Assembly: GCA_016840035.1 (NCBI GenBank) | Contig: JAEOTC010000075.1 | Location: forward strand, 1 to 64,000 | DNA: 64,000 nucleotides | Source: Candidatus Hodarchaeota archaeon | GTDB lineage: Archaea; Asgardarchaeota; Heimdallarchaeia; Hodarchaeales; Hodarchaeaceae | Direction of reading: 5' to 3' | Shown here: piece after piece, positions 6,286 to 37,979 of the stretch | Layout: the number at the start of each line of letters is the position of its first letter | How positions within the stretch are numbered: position 1 is the first letter of the stretch | Made by a program: the position numbers and the translations under genes | Notes under the pieces: generated by a model | The model's database searches: none | Seen by the model: only the letters and a program-made list of their open reading frames with translations | What the model was told of the DNA's origin: nothing

Positions 6286-7251
6286 TTATTTCCAGATCTT
6301 GCGGAAAACACGTTCATAGTTACCACCCATTATTTTCTGCACATCTTTTTTACTAAACCCTTCTTTTTCAAGTAATGGGACAATTTCCTTCATTTTACTA
6401 GCATTCTCCAATCCTAAGGGAGTAGTAGCTATACCATCGAAATCAGAACCGAGACCAACGTGATCTGTTCCTATAAGCTCCGTCATATATTTGATATGCT
6501 TGATTACGTCCTCTATTGAAGCTTTTTCTGGCTTATCAGCTAAAAATCGGGGGTAAAAATTAATTCCCACTACTCCATTAGCAGAAGCAATCATTTCTAA
6601 TTGTTCATCTGTTAAGTTTCTAGAAACAGAGCAGACTGAATGGGCATTTGAGTGTGAATCAATAAATGGTCCGTTAACATGTTTAACTACATCCTTATAC
6701 CCTTCATAATTCAAATGGGCAACATCAACAAGCATACCTAGAGTTTCCATTTCCTCTAATAAGAGAATTCCGTCTTTAGATAAGCCTCTTCCTCCCTGTT
6801 TATCCTTAAAACTAACTCCTTCGCCAAAAAGGTTATGTCTACTCCAAGTCAAACCAATATTCCTGACTCCCAATTCATAGAGTAATGGCAAGATCCTAAG
6901 ATTTCTTTCTATCGCAATAGCTCCCTCTAAACTTAGAACCATTCCTGTGGAAGATTCCTTATTCTGAGAAAGAAAATCGAGATCTGTAGGAGAAGTAATA
7001 ATCGTATAACCTTCTTCTTGTGCGAGGTTATTAGCTAAAGATATCATTTCAAGTGTTACATCTAAACCGATTTTTTCAAGTTTGGGGGGTACAAACATTG
7101 CAAAAACTTGCACGTCTACCTTTCCTTCCTCTAAATATTCTTTTGTGATGTGAAGAGGGTCTGCTTCTTGGGAAGAAAAGCGCATAAGTGTACTAAAATA
7201 TAGTTTCAGTAATGTGTCCGCGTGGGCATCAATAACTAAGTTTCGTGTCAT
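6286..7251 (-). CDS. membrane dipeptidase (peptidase M19 family)
   Basis: 'VIDAHADTLLKL', 'GVRNIGLTWSRHN', 'DVAHLNYEGYKDV', 'DSHSNAHSVCSVSRNLTDEQL', 'VGLGSDFDGI' motifs. Confidence 0.9.
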   Translation of the reverse strand: MTRNLVIDAHADTLLKLYFSTLMRFSSQEADPLHITKEYLEEGKVDVQVFAMFVPPKLEKIGLDVTLEMISLANNLAQEEGYTIITSPTDLDFLSQNKESSTGMVLSLEGAIAIERNLRILPLLYELGVRNIGLTWSRHNLFGEGVSFKDKQGGRGLSKDGILLLEEMETLGMLVDVAHLNYEGYKDVVKHVNGPFIDSHSNAHSVCSVSRNLTDEQLEMIASANGVVGINFYPRFLADKPEKASIEDVIKHIKYMTELIGTDHVGLGSDFDGIATTPLGLENASKMKEIVPLLEKEGFSKKDVQKIMGGNYERVFRKIWK

Positions 7252-7255
7252 AAAA

Positions 7256-8041
7256 TCAACTCAAAAAATCATCTAGCTGTTTAGTCCGAACAGTATTGGT
7301 GGGACGTTTGAGAGTAGGAAAAATCTCTTGCCAAGGGATGCTTACATGTTCCAGATTGTGTGTTTTCAAATAAGCAATAACCTTTTTGGGAATATGATTC
7401 GCTACTAAAATTCCTCGGACTGCTTCCCCTTTTTTTTGGAAAAATTCAATGTATCTATGCAATTGATAAGCATCGGTAAGTGTAGCTGCTTGTTTTTTAA
7501 CTTCGATGACTGTAAACGTACCATTGGAATCTTGACAGTATAAATCGATAAATCCAAAAGCAATTTCCTTCTCACGTTCAATGATTTTTAGATTAGACTC
7601 GATAAGTTCAGGATGGAGGACGAGCTGGTCAACAAAATCCTTCTCATCGCCAAAAGTTTGACTTCCCTTAGAAAGTCGCTCCTTAATCTGAAGAAAAGCA
7701 GCAAACCAGACTTCATAGAAAGTAATAAAAAACGATTCATCAGTTTTTGGCCTATAAGATTCCATAATTAGAGTGGAATTCTCAATGTTATAAGTAAAAT
7801 TGATTTTCCCTGCCCTAGCCTTTTGCCATTGAACAGGACGTGTTCCAGTTGCATTATGTAAAAGGATACTTCCATCCTTCTTAAGTATTAAGGTACGATC
7901 TCCTTTATCAAGAGTGGATTTTATGCGACCGTCAAAAATAGAATCACAAACCCCTACTATGAGGATCATGTCATTATCAAGATGGGAAGGGAGACTATCA
8001 GCAAGTTTGGACATGTCAGTCGGAAGTAACTCCAATTTCAA
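7256..8041 (-). CDS. nucS: endonuclease NucS/EndoMS
   Basis: 'GVCDSIFDGRIKSTLDKGDRTLILKKDGSILLHNATGTRPVQWQ' N-terminal domain; 'GFIDLYCQDSNGTFTVIEVKKQ' nuclease motif. Confidence 0.9.
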   Translation of the reverse strand: MKLELLPTDMSKLADSLPSHLDNDMILIVGVCDSIFDGRIKSTLDKGDRTLILKKDGSILLHNATGTRPVQWQKARAGKINFTYNIENSTLIMESYRPKTDESFFITFYEVWFAAFLQIKERLSKGSQTFGDEKDFVDQLVLHPELIESNLKIIEREKEIAFGFIDLYCQDSNGTFTVIEVKKQAATLTDAYQLHRYIEFFQKKGEAVRGILVANHIPKKVIAYLKTHNLEHVSIPWQEIFPTLKRPTNTVRTKQLDDFLS

Positions 8042-8054
8042 CCCATATCTCTAA

Positions 8055-8558
8055 CTATATTTCATCAAGAGCTTGATCGAGAAGACTCTTTGAGAAAGTC
8101 GCTTCAACAGATTGAGCAGCTTTGAGAAGATTGATTTGATCACCAATCTCTTGGGAAAATCTCTTAATTGAGTGTTTTATCCTCTGGATATTTGCATTTG
8201 CTGAAATAACGCCAACAAGGATACAATCATCAGTTATAGATTGTAAAATCAGCTTGCCCTCACTAAACTCAGAGAACACAAATCCGAGAGGACCCAATTC
8301 CACCTCATTTCCCTGCTGCCGCATTCCTATGAATAATGCCATAGACAATGCACCTATTCCTTCTAATTCAAGTGTTGATGTGGAACGTGTGACATTAGCT
8401 AGTGTAAGTCCAGTAGAGTCCGTAAGCATTGCATGTTGAAGTCCAGGAGTGTTTTTCAAGATCTTCACAAGAACATTATGAATGCTAACTGAAATATCCA
8501 TGACTAACTTTGTCAGACAACTCTTACATAAAAGTTCTGGACTGGATGAGTCACACAT
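8055..8558 (-). CDS. Roadblock/LC7 domain protein with Cys-containing N-terminal extension
   Basis: 'GLQHAMLTDSTGLTLANV...LSMALFIGMRQQGNEVELGPLGFVFSEFSEGKLILQSITDDCILVGVIS' matches the Roadblock/LC7 pattern. Confidence 0.8.
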   Translation of the reverse strand: MCDSSSPELLCKSCLTKLVMDISVSIHNVLVKILKNTPGLQHAMLTDSTGLTLANVTRSTSTLELEGIGALSMALFIGMRQQGNEVELGPLGFVFSEFSEGKLILQSITDDCILVGVISANANIQRIKHSIKRFSQEIGDQINLLKAAQSVEATFSKSLLDQALDEI

Positions 8559-8725: not shown

Positions 8726-8994
8726 CCAAAAGATTATTGCTTCTATTTCGTTCATCACCTCTCTTTAAAGGAGTTTAGAGGGAATTTTTATTTAAATTTG
8801 ATAGAGAGAAAGAGAAAGTCAATAGTATCGAAAATGGAAATTTCGGACGAAAATGACCATGTAAAATATATCTCCATTAAGATCGAGGAGAAAGTTATTG
8901 CTTTTTCTACCGACAAAAGATTTTTTAATAAATTCTACTCACACACTCCAATTAAGTTTGAAAAGATTGTTAAATAGGTTAAAGGTGATGGTAA

Positions 8995-10359
8995 ATGGCA
9001 GAAACAGCTTCAACGAATAAATTGCCTGTATTAATTGCAGGTGTAATAGGATGGGCCCATGATGGTTTTGCTCTAGTCTTGGTGTCCTTATTAGCGACAA
9101 CAATTGCAGCAGAATTTGCAGTATCAAAAGCGGAACTCGGTTTAGTCTTTTCTCTCCAGTACGTTATGACAGTATTTGGTGCAGCTTTCTTTGGATATAT
9201 GGCTGATAAATTTGGTCGGAAACAAGTGCTTCTAATATCAGTTCTATGGGACTCTATCTTCACTGCTCTCTCAGCCTTTGCCCCTACGTTTCTAATATTT
9301 GCAATCTTGCGTTTGATTAGTGGTTTAGGTGTTTCTTGGGGGATTTCATTCTCACTTCTTTCTGAGACATTCTCATCTGATAAACGAGGTAAAGCTGGGG
9401 GTCTTGTTCATGGCACATTTGTGGTGGGATATATTGCGGCAGTTATTGTAACTCTGATCTTTGGGGACATGGCTCCGATCACTCTTGGCCCTCTTGTTCT
9501 TGAAGGTTGGAGAATTTGCTTCTTATCCGCTTTGTTTCCAATTCCGTTTTTAATTTACTTAGAGTATAGATTGGATGAATCACAGGTTTGGGTTGAACAA
9601 AAAGAAATCTTGGATAGAAGTACAAGTGAGATTGACCTTGTTGAAGAAAAGACAACAGGAATTTCGGATATTCTCCGTAGTCAATGGTTAAAATTTATGG
9701 TTCTTCTAACGGTCTTATTTTGGCTATCAGAATTCGCTTATCACGCTTTAGCTGATTGGGCGCCTACATACTTTGAATATATGTTTATCCATGAGTTACA
9801 ACAGAGCGGTGGAAATGTAGATTCCGCTCAAACTCTGGCTAGGGTACTTATGCTAGGAATAATGGTTGTAGCTGGATTTGCTTTGTATTTAACAGGTTGG
9901 GCGAGTGACAGTATAGGTAGAAAACGTGCATTTTTCTATAGCTGTGTAATTGGATTAGTAGGTGTGGTTTTCTTTGTAACCTTCAACTTTGTCACGTACA
10001 TATTTCCTTTAATAATTGTGGGATGCCTTGTATTGACCTTTTCTTTTGGAATGCATGGTGTATTTGGTGTTTGGAGCGCAGAAGTCTTCCCTACAAGATT
10101 TCGTGCGACCGCTACCTCGTTCATCTTTTCTGTTGCGAGGGCATTAGCACTTGGCGCATTTATCATTGGTCTCATTACTGATGCATTAGAACCCACAGTT
10201 GGATCAGGTCTTCCTATCGAGGAACGAGTCTTACTCGACCCGTTGGGCTTTGCTCAAGCTCTCGCCGTCGGAATGACACTATGTGTATTTGCTTATGTGG
10301 CAATGTTTTTCGTCCTACGTCTCATACCTGAAACAAGAGGTAAAGATATTACTACATAA
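8995..10359 (+). CDS. MFS transporter, metabolite:H+ symporter type
   Basis: 454 aa, 12 TM-like; 'GYMADKFGRKQVLLISVL', 'GWASDSIGRKRAFF', 'AEVFPTRFRATATSF'. Confidence 0.88.
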   Translation: MAETASTNKLPVLIAGVIGWAHDGFALVLVSLLATTIAAEFAVSKAELGLVFSLQYVMTVFGAAFFGYMADKFGRKQVLLISVLWDSIFTALSAFAPTFLIFAILRLISGLGVSWGISFSLLSETFSSDKRGKAGGLVHGTFVVGYIAAVIVTLIFGDMAPITLGPLVLEGWRICFLSALFPIPFLIYLEYRLDESQVWVEQKEILDRSTSEIDLVEEKTTGISDILRSQWLKFMVLLTVLFWLSEFAYHALADWAPTYFEYMFIHELQQSGGNVDSAQTLARVLMLGIMVVAGFALYLTGWASDSIGRKRAFFYSCVIGLVGVVFFVTFNFVTYIFPLIIVGCLVLTFSFGMHGVFGVWSAEVFPTRFRATATSFIFSVARALALGAFIIGLITDALEPTVGSGLPIEERVLLDPLGFAQALAVGMTLCVFAYVAMFFVLRLIPETRGKDITT

Positions 10360-10402
10360 CTGATGGAGAATCATCGGATTCTCCCTCTCCAACTTTTCTT
10401 TT

Positions 10403-11377
10403 CTAATCATATTGTTGCATCATCATCAGTAACTGGAATGTAGCAGCTTCCTTTTCTCGCATTGATTCAGTCATATCTTTAGTAGTATAGTCATGAAAAC
10501 CTTTTCCAGACTTTACTCCAAGGGTTTCTTCCTTGATCATCTTTTCTAAAAATTCAGGCGGTTGTATGGACCGATCTAATGCAGGATAAAGATACGAAAG
10601 GACATTTTTTATCGTGTCAATCCCCATCAGATCTACCATTTCAAAAACTTTCATTACAGGTAACCTTAATCCTAATCCGTACCTTACCGTGGTTTCTAGA
10701 TCATTAACATCCATGACTTCATTATCTACTAAGTACATCAGTTCTCTAAATACTGCTGCTTGTAAACGATTATGCACATACCCAGGAATATCCTTTTTCA
10801 CTAAAACTGGACGTTTATTGACATTTGTTAGTAAATCTGTGATTACAGCAATAGTCTCATCAGAAGTTTGAGCTCCTTTTACTATTTCAACTAAAGGCAT
10901 AAGGAGTGGAGGATTCATGAAATGTGTACCAATTACTCTTTCAGGATTTTGAGTTACCTTGGCAATTTCAGAAATACTTAGGCCTGAGGAATTTGTTGCT
11001 AGGATCGTATCGGATGATACTATTCCCTCTATCTCTTTGAAGAATTTCTGTTTGAGTTCGATCTTCTCTGGAATTACTTCAATAATTAGTTGGGATTCAC
11101 TCAGATCATTTAATTCAGAAACGAATTGAATTCGATCCCTTGCAACTTTAAGATCATCACTACTAAAAATTCCCACGCTCTCTACTTTAGTAAAATCTTC
11201 TTCCATCCGTTTTTGAGCATTCTCAATTGCTTCGCTAGATATATCAAATAATTTTATAGAAAAATCAAAAGAAGATCCAAATATTGCGAGAATTTCTGCT
11301 ATTCCAGGTCCCATTACCCCAACTCCAACAATTCCTATGTTTTTGATAGAATTTAAGTCCATTTTAGTCACCAACAT
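10403..11377 (-). CDS. 3-hydroxyacyl-CoA dehydrogenase family protein
   Basis: 'NIGIVGVGVMGPGIAEI' Rossmann; 'IEVIPEKIELKQKFFKEIE', 'ATNSSGLSISEIA', 'GTHFMNPPLLMPLVEIVKG', 'DIPGYVHNRL'. Confidence 0.92.
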   Translation of the reverse strand: MLVTKMDLNSIKNIGIVGVGVMGPGIAEILAIFGSSFDFSIKLFDISSEAIENAQKRMEEDFTKVESVGIFSSDDLKVARDRIQFVSELNDLSESQLIIEVIPEKIELKQKFFKEIEGIVSSDTILATNSSGLSISEIAKVTQNPERVIGTHFMNPPLLMPLVEIVKGAQTSDETIAVITDLLTNVNKRPVLVKKDIPGYVHNRLQAAVFRELMYLVDNEVMDVNDLETTVRYGLGLRLPVMKVFEMVDLMGIDTIKNVLSYLYPALDRSIQPPEFLEKMIKEETLGVKSGKGFHDYTTKDMTESMREKEAATFQLLMMMQQYD

Positions 11378-29589: not shown

Positions 29590-31152
29590 ATGCGATGTAG
29601 AGAGTGTGGAGCTGAGAATCCACCTGAAGCCCGTTTTTGTTACCAATGTGGGAAAGAGATATCAAGACTGCCTCAAGATGCAAGCAGTTTTCAGTCACAA
29701 TCTGCATTCTGTCAGAAATGCGGCGTTCAAAATCCTCCAAGTTCTAAATTTTGTATGGAATGTGGCACAACCTTAAAGCAAATTGAAGCTAAAAGCCCAA
29801 ATGTTTGTCCTACATGCAATTCTCCAATAGAATCTTCTTATTCTCTATGTCCTAATTGTGGGCATTCACTTGGGGGCATGAGCAAGACTTCTTGGAGTAC
29901 ACCAGATGTAGATGATAGAGAATTAGAGATTTGCCCTTCTTGCGGGAAACAAACAAGTGGTGAATATTGTCAAGACTGTGGGTTTCGTCTGAGGACGCGT
30001 CAGTCTCCCGTCGATTGGTGGTATTGTACTCGTGAATCAGCAATTATGCAGGAAATAGATCCCAAAAGTCAATTTTTAATTCCGAAAGAATCATTAGAAG
30101 AATCTATTGCATCATTTCAACAAGAAGAAAAATTTCCCAATTATCAGAGTGATTCAATTAGACAATTGAGTAATTTAGTATTTTCCCGCGATCACACCAG
30201 CAATTTTTGTTCAATAACGAAAGTAAAATGTCCAATTTGTGGTCAAACATCCTATGCGTCTATTAATGTAAGACCTAAGACCTCTCAGTTGATTGGTTCA
30301 GGGACAAAGAAATTAAACGGAAGTGCTCTAATAAAAAGCGGCATTTTTTACATGCGGAACTTCAAGGAATTTTACTTAATTATCGCAGTAGGAGTTATGA
30401 TCGATTTAATTGTGACAATATTAGGAGGAAATTTATCTACCGTTGATGCTCTTACGAATTTCTTCTCTGATTTTGATACGGCTGCATTAAATGAGAGTCT
30501 CTATACCATGAATATAGGTACATTAGCTATAGACTTCGTATTGTCATCCTTTTTGCTAAGTTGGACCCTTATTTCGCTAAAGCAAATTAAAAATCAAGGG
30601 TATTCCTCAATTGATCTGATTTCAGGTGCTGGAACTTCAGTTCGAACTATTGTGAGTGTATTGATATTAATGCTTGTTCCTTTTATGGTATCGATAATTT
30701 CTCTCATTGGTTTGGGTTCTATAAATCTCTCTTATACCGATTCGTTATATGGCTATTCAGAATATCCCTACTCCGGCACAGATTCAGTAATAGGTTCGTT
30801 ATTAGGAATATTGGCTTTTACTCTTGGAATTGCGCTTCTCGAGATTGTGGTGATGATATTAACAACATATTTTCTTCCTGCTTTCATTTTCAATCCTGAT
30901 CGGTCAATCAAAAATAGTATAGAGCGAGGATATGTGTTTGCGAGAAAATATTTCTGGTTAACTTTGGGAATAACTATACTATTCAATTTGATAGGCAATA
31001 TTGGCTCATTTTTTACTTTACCATCATACTTTTTAGGGACAGCACTAATTCCAGTTCTCATTACTTCGATCATTATACGAACGATAGCAGTGTATCGAAT
31101 TCTGTCTTTCGGTTGGGCATATGACGAATTTAAAGATGAAGTGCATAAATGA
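29590..31152 (+). CDS. multi-zinc-ribbon membrane protein
   Basis: Five CxxC-rich ribbons (CRECG..CYQCG; CQKCG..CMECG; CPTCN..CPNCG; CPSCG..CQDCG; CPICG) followed by about 6 TM. Confidence 0.82.
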   Translation: MRCRECGAENPPEARFCYQCGKEISRLPQDASSFQSQSAFCQKCGVQNPPSSKFCMECGTTLKQIEAKSPNVCPTCNSPIESSYSLCPNCGHSLGGMSKTSWSTPDVDDRELEICPSCGKQTSGEYCQDCGFRLRTRQSPVDWWYCTRESAIMQEIDPKSQFLIPKESLEESIASFQQEEKFPNYQSDSIRQLSNLVFSRDHTSNFCSITKVKCPICGQTSYASINVRPKTSQLIGSGTKKLNGSALIKSGIFYMRNFKEFYLIIAVGVMIDLIVTILGGNLSTVDALTNFFSDFDTAALNESLYTMNIGTLAIDFVLSSFLLSWTLISLKQIKNQGYSSIDLISGAGTSVRTIVSVLILMLVPFMVSIISLIGLGSINLSYTDSLYGYSEYPYSGTDSVIGSLLGILAFTLGIALLEIVVMILTTYFLPAFIFNPDRSIKNSIERGYVFARKYFWLTLGITILFNLIGNIGSFFTLPSYFLGTALIPVLITSIIIRTIAVYRILSFGWAYDEFKDEVHK

Positions 31153-32870
31153 GATCAAAATTTTTTCGAAAATCCCTTCTTCGAGGTTTGTCAATAACTT
31201 GTTTCCTTCTACTAATTATTTTACTCCTTTTATCCAGAAATTCAGGACAATCTAGTCTTCTATTTTGGCAAATTACCCAATTTTGTGGCCCTCTCTTATT
31301 TTTGGGTATATGGTTCCCTTTTGCCTTATCATTTCTACTAGATTCATCAGTAGAGATGAGATCGCTTTCTCGATCCGCAACGGTGATGATTTTTGGAAGT
31401 ATCATTATAGTATTAGGAGCCTTGATGCTGAATACCCGAATGTTATTCATTATTATGGGATCGATCTCAAATTTGTTTGAGATCAGAGTCGATGATCTTG
31501 TAGGTCAATTTTTTCTTTGGGAAATGACTACTGGCCTATTATTACCCCTAAATGAAGAAATAATTAAGATTTTACCAATTTTAGTACTTTCTCATGCAGC
31601 TGTAGTATCATTTGACCCTGAGGATGAAAAAATCGTGGTGAGGACACCTCAAATAAAACAAATCCTAATCTCACGAAGACAATATGTTCTATACGCTATT
31701 ATTAGTGGAACTGTTTTTACTTTCTTTGAATTATTTTTATATCAATGGGAGTCGATTCAACCTAGTCTAGATCCTTTTTCAGATGTCTACTTCCAAATTA
31801 CCTTACGAACACTTGCACCTTTACATATCCTCTCAACAATTTTCTTTGCACTCGGAATATATACTTTGAATGGTCGACTCACGGGAACAATTTCAAAAAG
31901 AATGGCAATACTTTCGTCAATTAAGTATTTTCTTCTTGGCTGGGGTCTTCATTCATTCTGGAATTCATTGAACGTATATTTTGCAGTATTCCTTCCAGAG
32001 ATGCAGGATTTATTGTATCTATTACTTTTCGGAATCGGAATCATCATCAATATTTCATTAATTCTGATAATCTGGCGGATTTTTCGAATAACCCCACGAT
32101 TCTGTGTTAAGTGCGGATTTGAAGGGATAAACCACTTTCATCCAGAAAAAGTTATTACATCTGAGAACGTAGCCCCCTCTCGCGGATTCAGTTTTCTTCC
32201 TCCTAGAATCAGCAGATTCAGGCTCGCTTCTAGATATATCTGTCCCAATTGCTTTAATAAAATCCGTACAGAGGGAACATGTGCGCATTGTGGTTCACGA
32301 ATTTATCAAACCTGTCCAAACTGTAACACTTTCCTATCAGAAACAACAACAATCTGCCCTAATTGTCGTAAACGGATAATCTCCCTCGATGAGATGAGTT
32401 TTCGTTCACTCTCGATGGTTGAAACATGGATAATCGGAGTAAGTGTGCTAACTTCCTTAGTTTTTACTCTCACTCCTCTTTCTATACTCTTTTGGTTACG
32501 TCAAGAAGCTATCTTGATTCCGTTGCCAATATATCTTTTTTACTTCATAATGGGGTTAATTATTGTCATAAGCACACTTATCACATTGTTTTTTAATCGG
32601 ACTATGGGAATATTAGTATTGTACTGCCATATCCTTAATCTGTTTTTACTGGGAATAATCAGTCTTTTCGGCTCATCATTTATTGGAATATTACTTTCGA
32701 TACGTCTAACTGATCCTATTGGAGGAATCCTAATTCTTGGAATAAGTATTATTCTGTATTCCTTATTTAAACGGATTTTCAACCTTTTTTATCATAGCTA
32801 TCACCCAATTTTTCCTGAATTTTTGGATTCTGTAAGCGAAACAGTGAAAGGAGGTAGGGGTTATGAGTAA
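31149..32870 (+). CDS. PrsW-like putative intramembrane protease fused to zinc ribbons
   Basis: TM motifs 'LLLPLNEEIIKILP', 'TVFTFFELFLYQW', 'APLHILSTIFFALGIY', 'LGWGLHSFWNSL' in PrsW order, then CPNC..CAHC..CPNC..CPNC ribbons and C-terminal TMs. Confidence 0.7.
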   Translation: MRSKFFRKSLLRGLSITCFLLLIILLLLSRNSGQSSLLFWQITQFCGPLLFLGIWFPFALSFLLDSSVEMRSLSRSATVMIFGSIIIVLGALMLNTRMLFIIMGSISNLFEIRVDDLVGQFFLWEMTTGLLLPLNEEIIKILPILVLSHAAVVSFDPEDEKIVVRTPQIKQILISRRQYVLYAIISGTVFTFFELFLYQWESIQPSLDPFSDVYFQITLRTLAPLHILSTIFFALGIYTLNGRLTGTISKRMAILSSIKYFLLGWGLHSFWNSLNVYFAVFLPEMQDLLYLLLFGIGIIINISLILIIWRIFRITPRFCVKCGFEGINHFHPEKVITSENVAPSRGFSFLPPRISRFRLASRYICPNCFNKIRTEGTCAHCGSRIYQTCPNCNTFLSETTTICPNCRKRIISLDEMSFRSLSMVETWIIGVSVLTSLVFTLTPLSILFWLRQEAILIPLPIYLFYFIMGLIIVISTLITLFFNRTMGILVLYCHILNLFLLGIISLFGSSFIGILLSIRLTDPIGGILILGISIILYSLFKRIFNLFYHSYHPIFPEFLDSVSETVKGGRGYE

Positions 32871-33672
32871 TTTACTATTTAGAAAAAAATCTAAGCCTAG
32901 AAGCGCTAATCCTCATGCGGGATTAAAAGCGGGTTTTCTTCTCCTATCTATTGGATTTTTCCTTCAGTTTTTGTTCCTCAACTTATTATCACTCATCTTA
33001 GGGATAGGAACCGAGTTTGCAGAAATGACAATCCTAATTAGCGGATTACCCGAACTTGATATTGTACTTCCGTTTTTAGTCCTTATTCTACTTCCCATGA
33101 CTGCTATTACTACAAATTTATGGGTTACATTACTTTCAGTCATTCCTTGGATAATTGCAGGATGTATTACTGGATACTTTTGTGGGCCCGATCTTGAAAA
33201 AGCAATATTCCTAAGTTTTCCTTCATTTTTTGGATCGATAGCAGTTTTGATTATTCTAGCGCTTTTTACTTTATTTGGCGTTCTTCTTCCAGTTTTCCCT
33301 TCCCTTCAGATAGTTTTCTTGTTTGCAACAATACTCACACTAGCCATGTACGGAATGGTACTGATAGGAGGAATCAGTCTATATTTCTTTCTACCATCCT
33401 ATATTGGTTATTATATTGGAAAAAAATATACTCCTCAATTATATCCTCAAATATTTTATGCTCAACCAAATAGAATTGATCCTAGGAGCGTATATTGTAG
33501 ATTCTTAACTCGTGATAATAGGTGTGGAGTTGGTCGAAGTTCTTTTATTCCAGGTACGTGTGATAATCGATTTAACCAAGTAACGTGTCCTATATATGTA
33601 CGGGTAACCAAAGCAACACGAAAGAAAATTCAACCAGGAGGTCTTTTTTCTGAAATTAAGAAGTCTCTTTAA
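32863..33672 (+). CDS. membrane protein with C-terminal four-Cys motif
   Basis: Several TM; C-terminal CX8CX11CX8C (CRFLTRDNRCGVGRSSFIPGTCDNRFNQVTC). Overlaps the previous gene by 8 bp; GGAGGT upstream of the ATG. Confidence 0.72.
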   Translation: MSNLLFRKKSKPRSANPHAGLKAGFLLLSIGFFLQFLFLNLLSLILGIGTEFAEMTILISGLPELDIVLPFLVLILLPMTAITTNLWVTLLSVIPWIIAGCITGYFCGPDLEKAIFLSFPSFFGSIAVLIILALFTLFGVLLPVFPSLQIVFLFATILTLAMYGMVLIGGISLYFFLPSYIGYYIGKKYTPQLYPQIFYAQPNRIDPRSVYCRFLTRDNRCGVGRSSFIPGTCDNRFNQVTCPIYVRVTKATRKKIQPGGLFSEIKKSL

Positions 33673-33700
33673 AAATAGGTATACCCTGATAATTCTGATA

Positions 33701-34405
33701 TTGAGTGCTAGTATATGGGTTATTGTGGATGGTGGAACACATAACTCACCATATCGAAAACAAGGAATATACAGTGATGTTCCTTTAGTTAAGGATTCTG
33801 ATAGATCTGGGTTTAACCTTTGGGATTTATTGGATTTCCTTGATTTTACATTACCTGAGTTACCTATGCCTCAAATTGCGCCCCTTCTTGGGTTATCAGC
33901 AGGCGGATTGATGTTTTTATTCGTGATATTGTTAATTATGGTTGTTTTATTCGGAATATCACTCATAATTTCATCAAAATTCAGATCAAAGAGTAAAGAA
34001 GAAATTTTTGTCGAGGAAGAAGATCAACCTGATATTAAAGAGTTGATAAAGCGTCGAGAAACTCTCGGAAAGCGTATTGATGAAATTATCACATTCTTGG
34101 AGACTTCAGGAAATAAAGAGTCTTTCAGTGAGGCAATAACTTTAGGATTCGAAAAATTGGATTTAGCGTTAAAAGAATTTTCAAAGATATCTCGCCCAGG
34201 ATGGTTAACTCCACGTGAATATGCTGAAATGCGGATTCCATACTTCGATCATAAATCTCTATCCGTAGCTGTTGAGATCTTCTACGAAATAACGTATGGT
34301 GAACGAACTGCGACTTTAAGAGAGTTTAATTTGTTTTTATCAAGTATCAAATCGATGATAAGTGATCAAACAATACTTCGTTGGAAATCTGATCAAGACT
34401 TATGA
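33701..34405 (+). CDS. DUF4129-like membrane protein (start uncertain; possible CTG start at 33650)
   Basis: C-terminal 'RPGWLTPREYAEM...LSVAVEIFYEITYGERTATLREFNLFLSSIK' resembles DUF4129. The frame continues open upstream to 33608. Confidence 0.7.
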   Translation: MSASIWVIVDGGTHNSPYRKQGIYSDVPLVKDSDRSGFNLWDLLDFLDFTLPELPMPQIAPLLGLSAGGLMFLFVILLIMVVLFGISLIISSKFRSKSKEEIFVEEEDQPDIKELIKRRETLGKRIDEIITFLETSGNKESFSEAITLGFEKLDLALKEFSKISRPGWLTPREYAEMRIPYFDHKSLSVAVEIFYEITYGERTATLREFNLFLSSIKSMISDQTILRWKSDQDL

Positions 34406-34422
34406 TTAAGGAGTTACATGAC

Positions 34423-35661
34423 ATGAATATACACATGAGAAAGTATCTGTATGTTTTTAGTGTCCTGATAGGTCTTCTTCTTATTCTGATCCCTCCACTT
34501 CAACCTGCTGCATATACAATTTCTAATACTCATTGGTCTGGAGCTTCAAGTTTTCAGTCCTCTTTCGAAGGAAACCATAAAATTACCTCTACAAATATTC
34601 CTCTAAGTTTACTAGGTGATCTAAATCAGCTCACTGACATTATCATCATAATTGGAGGAAGCTTACCTTATTATCCTGAAGAATCACAAAAACTCCTAAC
34701 TTTCGTTTCAAATGGAGGAATTCTCATCCTTTTTGAAGATACAGGATATGGTCGAATTTTAACAGAGGCATTTGGATTGAGATTAGGTGGAACCCTTATT
34801 GACCAAGATAATCATGGGCCTAATCCATATTTACCCAAATCTGTGCAACCTGAACTTCAAATCCAAAATACAGTAATAAATCAACATAATGTGATTTTCA
34901 ATCATGGAGTAAGAGTTAAGCAATTTTACCGCCTTCCAAATACACTTTATCGTCCGCTGTTCCCGCTTGAAGGGTTCGTTTGGGAAGACAAAGATGGGGA
35001 TGGAAAATTTCATGAGGAAGAAGAGAGAGTTACAGATGATGCTTATCTAGGAGGAATCCTTGAATTTCCAAATACTAATGGATTATGCATTGTGATAGGT
35101 GATTCCGCCTTTCCCACTAATGATATGATCTCACGAGAGCAGAATCGTGAATGGCTCTTGGAACTTGTACGTCTGATCACTCAAAATGACAATAAAAATG
35201 TTCTTTTTGATGAGAGTCGAAAGTTATGGATTCCACCATCTGGGATCGCATTGATCTCTTACGTTTCAATCATAATTTTAGGGATATTTCATTCTCCGTT
35301 AATTGCTTTCACTGCTTTGATTATTTTAGTAGGAATACTAGCAATTAGGAAAAATCGGGAGATAATGGAATTCACACACCGTTTAAAAGAGCCATTTGAT
35401 AGAAAGGCAAGAATTCCAACGCAAGCCTATCTACAATCAGCGGAGGAGGAAGTTTTCAGTAGCTACGGTAAGAAATCTTCAAGATCCAACCTTTATCGAG
35501 ATTTAATAGTTGAAGAATTACTGGAAATAGAAGAAAGGCTTACACATGAGGAAAAGAGGTATTTTGAGGATTCATTACGCCAACGGATATTCACTTTTGC
35601 TGATTATGAGAAACACAAATATCAAATTGAACAATTTAAGAAAAACCTAAATGAGGAGTAA
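34423..35661 (+). CDS. DUF4350-like membrane protein
   Basis: N-terminal TM, 'IIIIIGGSLPYYPEESQKLLTFVSNGGILILFEDTGYG' glutamine-amidotransferase-like fold, TM near C-terminus. ATG at 34423 preferred (AAGGAG upstream); listed ORF starts at 34402. Confidence 0.72.
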   Translation: MNIHMRKYLYVFSVLIGLLLILIPPLQPAAYTISNTHWSGASSFQSSFEGNHKITSTNIPLSLLGDLNQLTDIIIIIGGSLPYYPEESQKLLTFVSNGGILILFEDTGYGRILTEAFGLRLGGTLIDQDNHGPNPYLPKSVQPELQIQNTVINQHNVIFNHGVRVKQFYRLPNTLYRPLFPLEGFVWEDKDGDGKFHEEEERVTDDAYLGGILEFPNTNGLCIVIGDSAFPTNDMISREQNREWLLELVRLITQNDNKNVLFDESRKLWIPPSGIALISYVSIIILGIFHSPLIAFTALIILVGILAIRKNREIMEFTHRLKEPFDRKARIPTQAYLQSAEEEVFSSYGKKSSRSNLYRDLIVEELLEIEERLTHEEKRYFEDSLRQRIFTFADYEKHKYQIEQFKKNLNEE

Positions 35662-35665
35662 AATA

Positions 35666-36607
35666 ATGGATGCTTTAGAGATAAAGACAATTGTCGAACA
35701 GATCATAGAAGAAATGCAGAATCGAGTTGTAGGATTGGATTTTGCGATCGAAAATGTTTTAACAAGTTATTTTGCCAATGGGCATGTCCTACTAGAGGGG
35801 GTTCCAGGTATTGCGAAGTCTATGATGGCATTTTCTCTTGCAGAGGTATTAGGACTTGATTTTACCCGTATTCAATTCACACCTGATTTGATGCCTGGTG
35901 ATATCACAGGCGTATCTGTATATAATATGAAAACTCAGGAGTTTAATTTCATCAAAGGACCCGTTTTTTCTAACATTGTCCTTTGTGACGAAATTAGTCG
36001 TGCCCCTCCAAAAACTCATTCAGCTCTTTTAGAGGCAATGCAAGAAAGACAAATTAGCCATGAAGGTATTACCTATAAGCTTCCAGAACCTTTTCTGGTA
36101 ATTGCTACACAAAACCCTATAGAACAGGCCGGTGTATACCCACTACCAGAAGCTCAGCTCGATCGATTCCTTATTCGACAAATTATACCCTATCCCTCTG
36201 TTGAGGCTGAATTAAAAATTCTCAAGCTGAAACAACGGCAAGATATGCTACCTGTAAATGTTCTGACAGATAGAACGACTATACTAAAGATTCAGCAATT
36301 CGTTCGTGAAGAAGTACTTGTATCCGAGAAAATTATGGAGTATATCGTTAATCTGATAAGAAAGACTCGAGAACATTACGGTCTAACTCTAGGTGGTTCT
36401 CCACGTGCATCTATATCTTTACTTACGATAGCTCAATCTAGAGCTGCGATTTCTGGTAGAGATTATGTTGAACCGGATGATATCAAACGTTTATTCTTCC
36501 CTGTTGTCAATCATCGGTTGATTTTAACCCCCGAATCAGAAATGGAACGAGTTCCAGTAATACAAATCGTTGATAATATTTTAAAGAATACAGAAGTGGT
36601 ATTGTAA
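35666..36607 (+). CDS. MoxR-family AAA+ ATPase
   Basis: 'NGHVLLEGVPGIAKSMMAFSLAEVLGLDFTRIQFTPDLMPGDITG', 'LCDEISRAPPKTHSALLEAMQERQ', 'IATQNPIEQAGVYPLPEAQLDRFLI'. ATG at 35666 (MDALEIK). Confidence 0.95.
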   Translation: MDALEIKTIVEQIIEEMQNRVVGLDFAIENVLTSYFANGHVLLEGVPGIAKSMMAFSLAEVLGLDFTRIQFTPDLMPGDITGVSVYNMKTQEFNFIKGPVFSNIVLCDEISRAPPKTHSALLEAMQERQISHEGITYKLPEPFLVIATQNPIEQAGVYPLPEAQLDRFLIRQIIPYPSVEAELKILKLKQRQDMLPVNVLTDRTTILKIQQFVREEVLVSEKIMEYIVNLIRKTREHYGLTLGGSPRASISLLTIAQSRAAISGRDYVEPDDIKRLFFPVVNHRLILTPESEMERVPVIQIVDNILKNTEVVL

Positions 36608-36626
36608 AAGTAGAGGTCTATAGATT

Positions 36627-37979
36627 TTGAAACGCTATCGTGAAATTTCGCCAAGTGGAATTTTGGTTCTACTCCTAAGTTCTTTTGGGGGGATAATTGG
36701 GATGAACTTAAATTTCCCAATTCTCTGGTTCCCAAGTTTTGTTTTTATTTTCTATTTTCTTCCATTCATCACATATTTCTATAGAGAATGGAACATATCA
36801 GCTCGACACTATGTTTCTTCATCAATTGTGACTCTTGGTGACTTCTTTTACTTGAAAATAATACTGAAGAATGTCAATCGGAGAAAAATTCGGTTTATTC
36901 TTGACATGAAGAATACCGATCACATTATCCTTGTAAAGGGCTGGTCATTCAAAAAAATGACTTTATTTCCTGGAGAGTCAAACTCTTGTTCCTTTATATT
37001 TGCCGTATCCAAACGAGGAATTCATAAGATCCAATCCTTCTCAGTAATTAGGAGTGATCCGTTAGGATTATATCGTGATGTAATTGAGTTTTCAGAACCA
37101 ATATCAATTCAAGTAATTCCCGCTAGACCCCAGATTAGACTTGATAAAAAACAAAAGCAAGAAGTTCGTCATACATTAGTTGGTCAATACGCATATAGAA
37201 GAAAAGGACAGGGTGATGAATTCTTCTCCTTAAATGATTATCAACGTGGAGATGAACCACGTAAGATTTACTGGAAGAAAAGTGCTCATCTTGGGAAATT
37301 AATATCTAAAGAGTTTGAGGATGAAATTGTATTTCGACTCTTTGTTGCTGTGGATACCAGTTACACGATGCGATCAAGGAAATTAGAATATTCTCTTACA
37401 AGTCTATTGGAACTAGCCGAAATGTGTTCCTATACTCATGATACTTTCGGATTCATTACCTTTGCAGATCATCCAAACCGTTATCTCAAACCAACTACTA
37501 GTCCACGTCTATACGAAAAGGTTTCAAGATTAATTTATGATTTAAATTCACATGACGAACCTGCGCGATTTGATACAATATTACCGTATATTTTTTCCTT
37601 GAAAGGAACCAGAAGTGTATTAGTTATACTTAGTGATTCAGAAGGGGTATTAGAAGACAAATTAAAAGCAATAGTAAAGTTAAGCAAGTTTGGACATCAT
37701 CTAATATTCTGCGAATTACGTGCAGACAAATTTGGTATTTCTGATTCTAAGATCAACCCTTATAATCTCGATACATATGAAAAATTAACAAATTTACAAT
37801 TGATTCATGATAAAGTTTCTGAAAACTATCGTATAAGAGAAGCTCGAATCCGTCAATTATTAGAAGAAGTGAGAGGGACATATATTCAGATAGGATCCTA
37901 TTCAGACAATCTGATGCTTCTAATAAAACATGAGATTGCTCAAATTCAACCATTGTTATCTCCTGTGATGTTAAAATGA
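36627..37979 (+). CDS. DUF58 domain protein (vWA-like)
   Basis: 'YRRKGQGDEFFSLNDYQRGDEPRKIYWKKSAHLGKLISKEFEDE' is DUF58-like; 'FVAVDTSYTM' metal-site-like motif; two N-terminal TM. Confidence 0.88.
   Translation: MKRYREISPSGILVLLLSSFGGIIGMNLNFPILWFPSFVFIFYFLPFITYFYREWNISARHYVSSSIVTLGDFFYLKIILKNVNRRKIRFILDMKNTDHIILVKGWSFKKMTLFPGESNSCSFIFAVSKRGIHKIQSFSVIRSDPLGLYRDVIEFSEPISIQVIPARPQIRLDKKQKQEVRHTLVGQYAYRRKGQGDEFFSLNDYQRGDEPRKIYWKKSAHLGKLISKEFEDEIVFRLFVAVDTSYTMRSRKLEYSLTSLLELAEMCSYTHDTFGFITFADHPNRYLKPTTSPRLYEKVSRLIYDLNSHDEPARFDTILPYIFSLKGTRSVLVILSDSEGVLEDKLKAIVKLSKFGHHLIFCELRADKFGISDSKINPYNLDTYEKLTNLQLIHDKVSENYRIREARIRQLLEEVRGTYIQIGSYSDNLMLLIKHEIAQIQPLLSPVMLK

What the first reader, a model, noticed from the sequence alone, without database searches (positions are those of the whole stretch)
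33608..33730. Likely CUG start codon giving the DUF4129-like protein its signal anchor
The first canonical start, TTG 33701, would leave only a truncated hydrophobic N-terminus (MSASIWVIVDGG). The same frame is open upstream from 33608 without ATG/GTG/TTG. GGAGG at 33637-33641 lies 8 nt before CTG at 33650, which would give M-KLRSLFKNRYTLIILILSASIWVIVDGG, a textbook basic plus hydrophobic signal anchor. A neighbouring gene in the operon (32863) also has a GGAGGT Shine-Dalgarno sequence.
Basis: seen in the sequence. Interest (0 to 1): 0.6.

Follow-up and report, generated by a model that had tools for sequence, protein, structure and literature searches.

The report
CUG start codon in Hodarchaeal gene
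A membrane-protein gene in an Asgard archaeon very probably starts at a rare CUG codon: two relatives begin at the same place, one of them with AUG. A few other genes in the same genus also appear to lack a standard start codon, which suggests looser start-codon rules in this lineage.

Summary
The frame is open from 33608, has no ATG/GTG/TTG before TTG 33701, and carries GGAGG 8 nt before CTG 33650. The window belongs to a Hodarchaeal (Asgard) MAG. Only two same-genus orthologues were found. In DNA and codon alignments CTG falls exactly on the ATG of the finished CP070695 chromosome and on the ACG of the third genome, which also has TTG one codon upstream. Both orthologues keep the basic + hydrophobic N-terminus that a TTG 33701 start would cut. 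The 8-nt spacer is typical: GGAGG-to-ATG spacers here peak at 7-9 nt. In 784 kb of this genome it is the only CTG with this configuration. It is not wholly isolated: a ClC channel gene has conserved GGAGG-N9-ACG in three species, a longin-like gene has ATC/ATC/ATT and no canonical start, NurA probably starts at ATT in two. The initiator tRNA keeps anticodon CAU (with an intron); aIF1 and aIF1A are present. Best reading: SD-assisted near-cognate initiation at CTG by ordinary Met-tRNAi. A consensus error or ATG polymorphism at 33650 is the main remaining rival. No paper found describes near-cognate starts in Asgard archaea. No transcript or peptide evidence was available.

The parts
33637..33642 (+). 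Shine-Dalgarno sequence GGAGGT, 8 nt (from GGAGG) before the CTG
   Evidence: Read directly. GGAGG-to-ATG spacers in the fetched sequence of this genus peak at 7-9 nt. SD-like GGAG is kept in both orthologues.
33650..33652 (+). CTG, proposed initiation codon
   Evidence: Aligns without a gap on ATG of G006/CP070695 and on ACG (preceded by TTG) of G003/JAUUVJ. Only CTG of its kind in 784 kb.
33650..34405 (+). DUF4129-like membrane protein, 251 codons from CTG
   Evidence: Orthologues at 44% and 40% identity. DUF4129 hit at 17.1 bits, below the cut-off of 24.8.
33677..33739 (+). N-terminal hydrophobic helix (residues 10-30 from CTG), the signal anchor
   Evidence: Helix 10-30 in a low-confidence AlphaFold2 model. 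Best 17-aa hydropathy 2.19 from CTG versus 0.26 from TTG 33701.
33701..33703 (+). TTG, first canonical start codon in the frame (probably internal Leu)
   Evidence: No SD nearby. Lies inside the anchor helix, downstream of the orthologues' starts.
32863..33672 (+). Upstream overlapping membrane-protein gene (ATG, GGAGGT SD); its 3' end carries the SD and CTG
   Evidence: ORF. Its C-terminal codons align codon by codon with orthologues, which fixes CTG against ATG.
31149..32870 (+). PrsW-family intramembrane protease-like protein with double zinc ribbon, same operon
   Evidence: Pfam PF13367 35.4 bits, cut-off 23.5.
34402..37979 (+). DUF4350 protein, MoxR-type AAA ATPase and DUF58/VWA protein, the rest of the operon
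   Evidence: Pfam above cut-off: PF14258, PF07726, PF01882.

Best explanation
CTG 33650 is the genuine start codon of the DUF4129-like gene. The Shine-Dalgarno GGAGGT, embedded in the end of the upstream gene, places the codon in the P site. The ordinary initiator Met-tRNA (anticodon CAU) then initiates on it with a first-position mismatch, giving a 251-residue protein with a basic + hydrophobic signal anchor. The ancestral codon at this place was probably ATG (or TTG one codon before). Shown: the SD, its spacing, the absence of canonical starts, and exact alignment with the orthologues' start region. Inferred: that ribosomes start there, that the first residue is Met, and that the lower efficiency of CUG adjusts expression in the operon. 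The genus appears to use near-cognate starts in several other genes (ACG, ATC/ATT, probably ATT).
For: Exact codon/DNA alignment CTG = ATG (G006) = ACG after TTG (G003). Conserved anchor N-terminus lost with TTG 33701. SD spacer of 8 nt at the optimum. Only CTG case in 536 long frames. No ATG lies between the SD and the CTG, so an indel cannot hide a start. Independent near-cognate starts in the genus: ClC, GGAGG-N9-ACG in three species; longin-like ATC/ATC/ATT, with in-frame TGA just upstream in two species; NurA ATT in two species. Frameshifted genes are rare in this assembly, about 2 against 208 intact matches. Initiator tRNA anticodon arm intact with an intron; aIF1 and aIF1A present.
Against: Only two orthologues exist in the genomes searched, both 40-44% identical. 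The window is a single MAG consensus and reads were not available. SD-centred counts show no genome-wide excess of CTG starts, so use is rare. No transcript or protein data.
Confidence: 0.76

Rival explanations
1. The real codon is ATG (or TTG) and the C at 33650 is a consensus error or a minor-strain variant of the metagenome assembly.
For: One substitution (C to A or C to T) would give a standard start, and the close orthologue has ATG. Read data could not be inspected.
Against: Frameshift errors are rare in this assembly; substitution errors at one given base are improbable. Other near-cognate starts in the genus are conserved over two or three independent assemblies.
Confidence: 0.14
2. 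Translation starts at TTG 33701 by re-initiation after the upstream stop (33672), giving a protein with a truncated anchor.
For: It is the first canonical start, 28 nt after the upstream stop.
Against: No SD; it removes the basic residues and half the hydrophobic helix. Both orthologues start about 17 codons earlier, and homology extends upstream of it (10 residues in the G006 BLAST alignment).
Confidence: 0.06
3. The two genes are joined by ribosomal frameshifting in the T6 run 33644-33649 instead of a new start.
For: A T6 homopolymer lies in the overlap.
Against: The downstream frame is +1 relative to the upstream gene, the T6 run is not kept in the orthologues, and G006 has its own ATG.
Confidence: 0.03

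Closest known systems
Rare CUG/AUU starts in bacteria and archaea (Belinky et al. 2017, PMC5622118)
   Same: AUG replaced by CUG at the same site in a relative.
   Different: There, only 2 of 61,358 ancestral AUG starts became CUG and 1 became AUU. Here one clear AUG/CUG difference appears in about 170 orthologue pairs, plus ACG and AUC/AUU starts not counted in the passage read. Our set is small and was partly found by looking for it.
Near-cognate initiation in eukaryotes (CUG, ACG, AUU, AUC, AUA; own knowledge)
   Same: The same spectrum of single-mismatch codons read by Met-tRNAi; AAG and AGG not seen.
   Different: Here guided by Shine-Dalgarno pairing, not scanning; no experiment.
Archaeal start codons AUG, GUG, UUG (review, PMC7531240)
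   Same: SD-led distal cistron in an operon.
   Different: The review names only AUG, GUG and UUG as archaeal starts in the passages read.
DUF4129 (PF13559) proteins in MoxR/DUF58 operons
   Same: C-terminal region and neighbours (MoxR, DUF58, DUF4350).
   Different: Score below the gathering cut-off in all members tested.

Membership tests
Near-cognate (CUG) translation start | No ATG/GTG/TTG at the N-terminus required by homology | tested here: met
Near-cognate (CUG) translation start | Initiation signal (SD) at proper spacing | tested here: met
   8 nt; ATG optimum 7-9 nt
Near-cognate (CUG) translation start | Orthologue has a recognised start codon in the same column | tested here: met
   ATG in CP070695; TTG one codon earlier in JAUUVJ
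Near-cognate (CUG) translation start | Ribosome initiation and N-terminal Met shown experimentally | not testable with these tools
   No proteome or Ribo-seq available
Near-cognate (CUG) translation start | Base call supported by reads | not testable with these tools
   Only the consensus is held
DUF4129 (PF13559) | Score above Pfam gathering cut-off (24.8 bits) | tested here: not met
   17.1 bits for the window protein; 14.6-16.8 for relatives that hit
DUF4129 (PF13559) | Neighbourhood of MoxR ATPase, DUF58 and DUF4350 genes | tested here: met

The most novel reading that the evidence does not exclude
Hodarchaeales of this genus, among the closest archaeal relatives of eukaryotes, have relaxed start-codon selection: a few per cent of genes start at CUG, ACG, AUU/AUC or AUA, read by a normal CAU initiator tRNA and helped by strong SD sequences. 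That is a eukaryote-like near-cognate spectrum in an SD-using archaeon.
Probability: 0.42. Interest if true: 0.75.

Novelty: new member of a known kind. Interest (0 to 1): 0.52.

Why it matters
Gene callers normally accept only ATG/GTG/TTG, so Asgard proteins with near-cognate starts are truncated or missed, including their signal anchors. If several genes per genome truly start at CUG, ACG or AUU, the stringency of start selection in the archaeal lineage nearest to eukaryotes becomes a testable question, for example with aIF1, aIF1A and initiator tRNA from these genomes.

Tried and rejected
SD-centred codon enrichment over 784 kb of the genome and 400 kb of G006: no CTG or ACG excess; SD use is too sparse for power. 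Changed initiator-tRNA anticodon: the plain anticodon-arm pattern was missing, but an intron-bearing CAU arm was found in G000, G001, G002 and G005. Loss of aIF1 or aIF1A: both present. RNA gene upstream of the longin gene: no Rfam match. C-to-U editing as a common cause: would fit CTG and ACG but not ATC/ATT. MoxR-vWA pair as evidence for an ATA start: withdrawn as ambiguous, because a slippery T TTT TTA is kept in all six species. CTG in the HD-domain gene (L101) and PadR gene (L075), ATC/ATT in a GNAT gene (L078), and the NurA start in this genome taken alone (L062): a 1-nt indel would restore an ATG there, so counted as weak. Viral contigs: no relative. PDB sequence search: only weak POU-domain hits.

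Full report
**What is in the sequence.** The frame of the DUF4129-like gene is open from 33608 to 34405 (after TAA 33605-33607). It holds no ATG, GTG or TTG before TTG 33701. GGAGGT lies at 33637-33642 and CTG at 33650-33652, 8 nt after GGAGG. The CTG is inside the last 23 nt of the upstream gene (32863-33672), so this is an overlapping distal cistron. The operon holds a PrsW-like protease with zinc ribbon (31149), the membrane protein (32863), this gene, DUF4350 (34402), a MoxR ATPase (35651) and DUF58 (36627).

**Origin.** The window is contig C9 of a 4.3 Mb, 293-contig assembly. Its nearest named relatives are Candidatus Heimdallarchaeota bin6 (CP070695, finished) and Hodarchaeota CSMAG_10. 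It is therefore a Hodarchaeal Asgard MAG.

**Orthologues.** Only two clear orthologues exist in the genomes searched, both in the same genus. The overlap with the upstream gene fixes the alignment codon by codon. The window reads GGA GGT CTT TTT TCT GAA ATT, G006 GGA GAT TTA ATT GAT GAA ATT, and G003 GGA GGT TTT ATT GAC GAG ATT. In the downstream frame these give CTG, ATG and ACG in the same column. MAFFT places them the same way. G003 also has TTG one codon before, G006 has TTG-ATG, and the window has TTT-CTG. All three proteins begin with a basic stretch and a hydrophobic helix. From CTG the best 17-residue hydropathy is 2.19; from TTG 33701 it is 0.26. AlphaFold2 (mean pLDDT 67, three sequences) puts a helix at residues 10-30. 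Starting at 33701 would cut it.

**Is the site typical?** Spacers between GGAGG and ATG in the fetched sequence of this genus peak at 7-9 nt, so 8 is at the optimum. In 784 kb of this genome, 536 long frames contain one case of a strong SD before an in-frame CTG upstream of any canonical start: this one. CTG is 0.67% of codons.

**Not wholly isolated.** Looking for other long frames with an SD but no canonical start, I compared them with relatives. The strongest is a ClC channel gene with TTTGGAGGC-N8-ACG in G000, G002 and G006. The spacer differs, its length and the ACG do not, and no canonical start precedes the conserved region. A pattern open to ATG or ACG gave ACG at all three loci. Second, a longin-like gene has ATC, ATC and ATT in G000, G002 and G001, with an in-frame TGA just before it in two of them. 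Third, NurA has AGGAGAGTA then ATT in G000 and G006, and the first canonical start lies 51-71 codons into the frame. A G002 gene (L210 +5698) has AAGGAG then ACG-ATA where G006 has ATG. Weaker cases are an HD-domain gene (CTG against ATG), a MarR-like gene (ATA), a GNAT gene (ATC/ATT) and a PadR gene (CTG). For the HD, GNAT and PadR genes a 1-nt indel would restore ATG, so they are not relied on.

**Assembly error as a cause.** Genes split by frameshift are rare: about 2 in this assembly against 208 intact matches, 1 in G006. Indels therefore cannot produce the set. For the window gene no ATG lies between SD and CTG, so only a substitution at 33650 could hide a normal start. Reads would settle it.

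**Mechanism.** The initiator tRNA anticodon arm is GGGCTCATAA plus intron plus ACCC in G000, G001, G002 and G005, so the anticodon is normal. aIF1 and aIF1A are present. The simplest mechanism is SD-anchored initiation by ordinary Met-tRNAi on codons with one mismatch (inferred). The well-supported codons are CTG, ACG and ATT/ATC; AAG and AGG did not appear.

**Compared with what is known.** In 36 triplets of related prokaryotes, 2 of 61,358 ancestral AUG starts became CUG and 1 became AUU (PMC5622118). Archaeal starts are described as AUG, GUG and UUG (PMC7531240). Paper searches found no report of near-cognate starts in Asgard archaea. One AUG/CUG difference in about 170 orthologue pairs is high, but the set is small and was examined because of this finding. 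I ran no control genome through the same steps.

**Limits.** Only about 18% of the genome was scanned and reads, transcripts and peptides are missing. The lineage-wide claim is a proposal. The claim for CTG 33650 itself rests on orthologue alignment, the SD and the conserved anchor, and I hold it at about three in four.

Noticed in passing
L058 (G000:C14) 8739-9851 +; G006:C1:2713934-2713957: MoxR gene end and vWA gene overlap at CGT TTT TTA followed by a stop (TAA, TAG or TGA) in six species of the genus. The heptamer T TTT TTA is kept in all six, so a programmed -1 frameshift making a MoxR-vWA fusion is possible; the alternative is an ATA start (ATG in one species) overlapping the stop.
   Followed up: partly
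L051/L140 (G000:C6) 6337-8265, L141, L142: ClC channel gene with conserved GGAGG-N9-ACG and no canonical start in three species.
   Followed up: yes
L126, L127, L128: Longin-like small protein gene with ATC/ATC/ATT at the N-terminus and a conserved short hairpin (GGTTG...CAACC type) just before it.
   Followed up: partly
G000:C184:98891-98922 (-) and G001, G002, G005: Initiator tRNA anticodon arm interrupted by a short intron after CAT; the uninterrupted arm is found in G003, G012, G013 and G014.
   Followed up: partly
L043 5974-6702 (orthologue in CP070695): Pfam POU domain hit (27.8 bits, just above cut-off) in the cytoplasmic part of the orthologue; weak in the others, probably a chance helix-turn-helix likeness.
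   Followed up: no
L053 (G000:C8) 10116-10793: A gene split into two frames relative to its intact G006 counterpart: a frameshift, real or assembly error.
   Followed up: no
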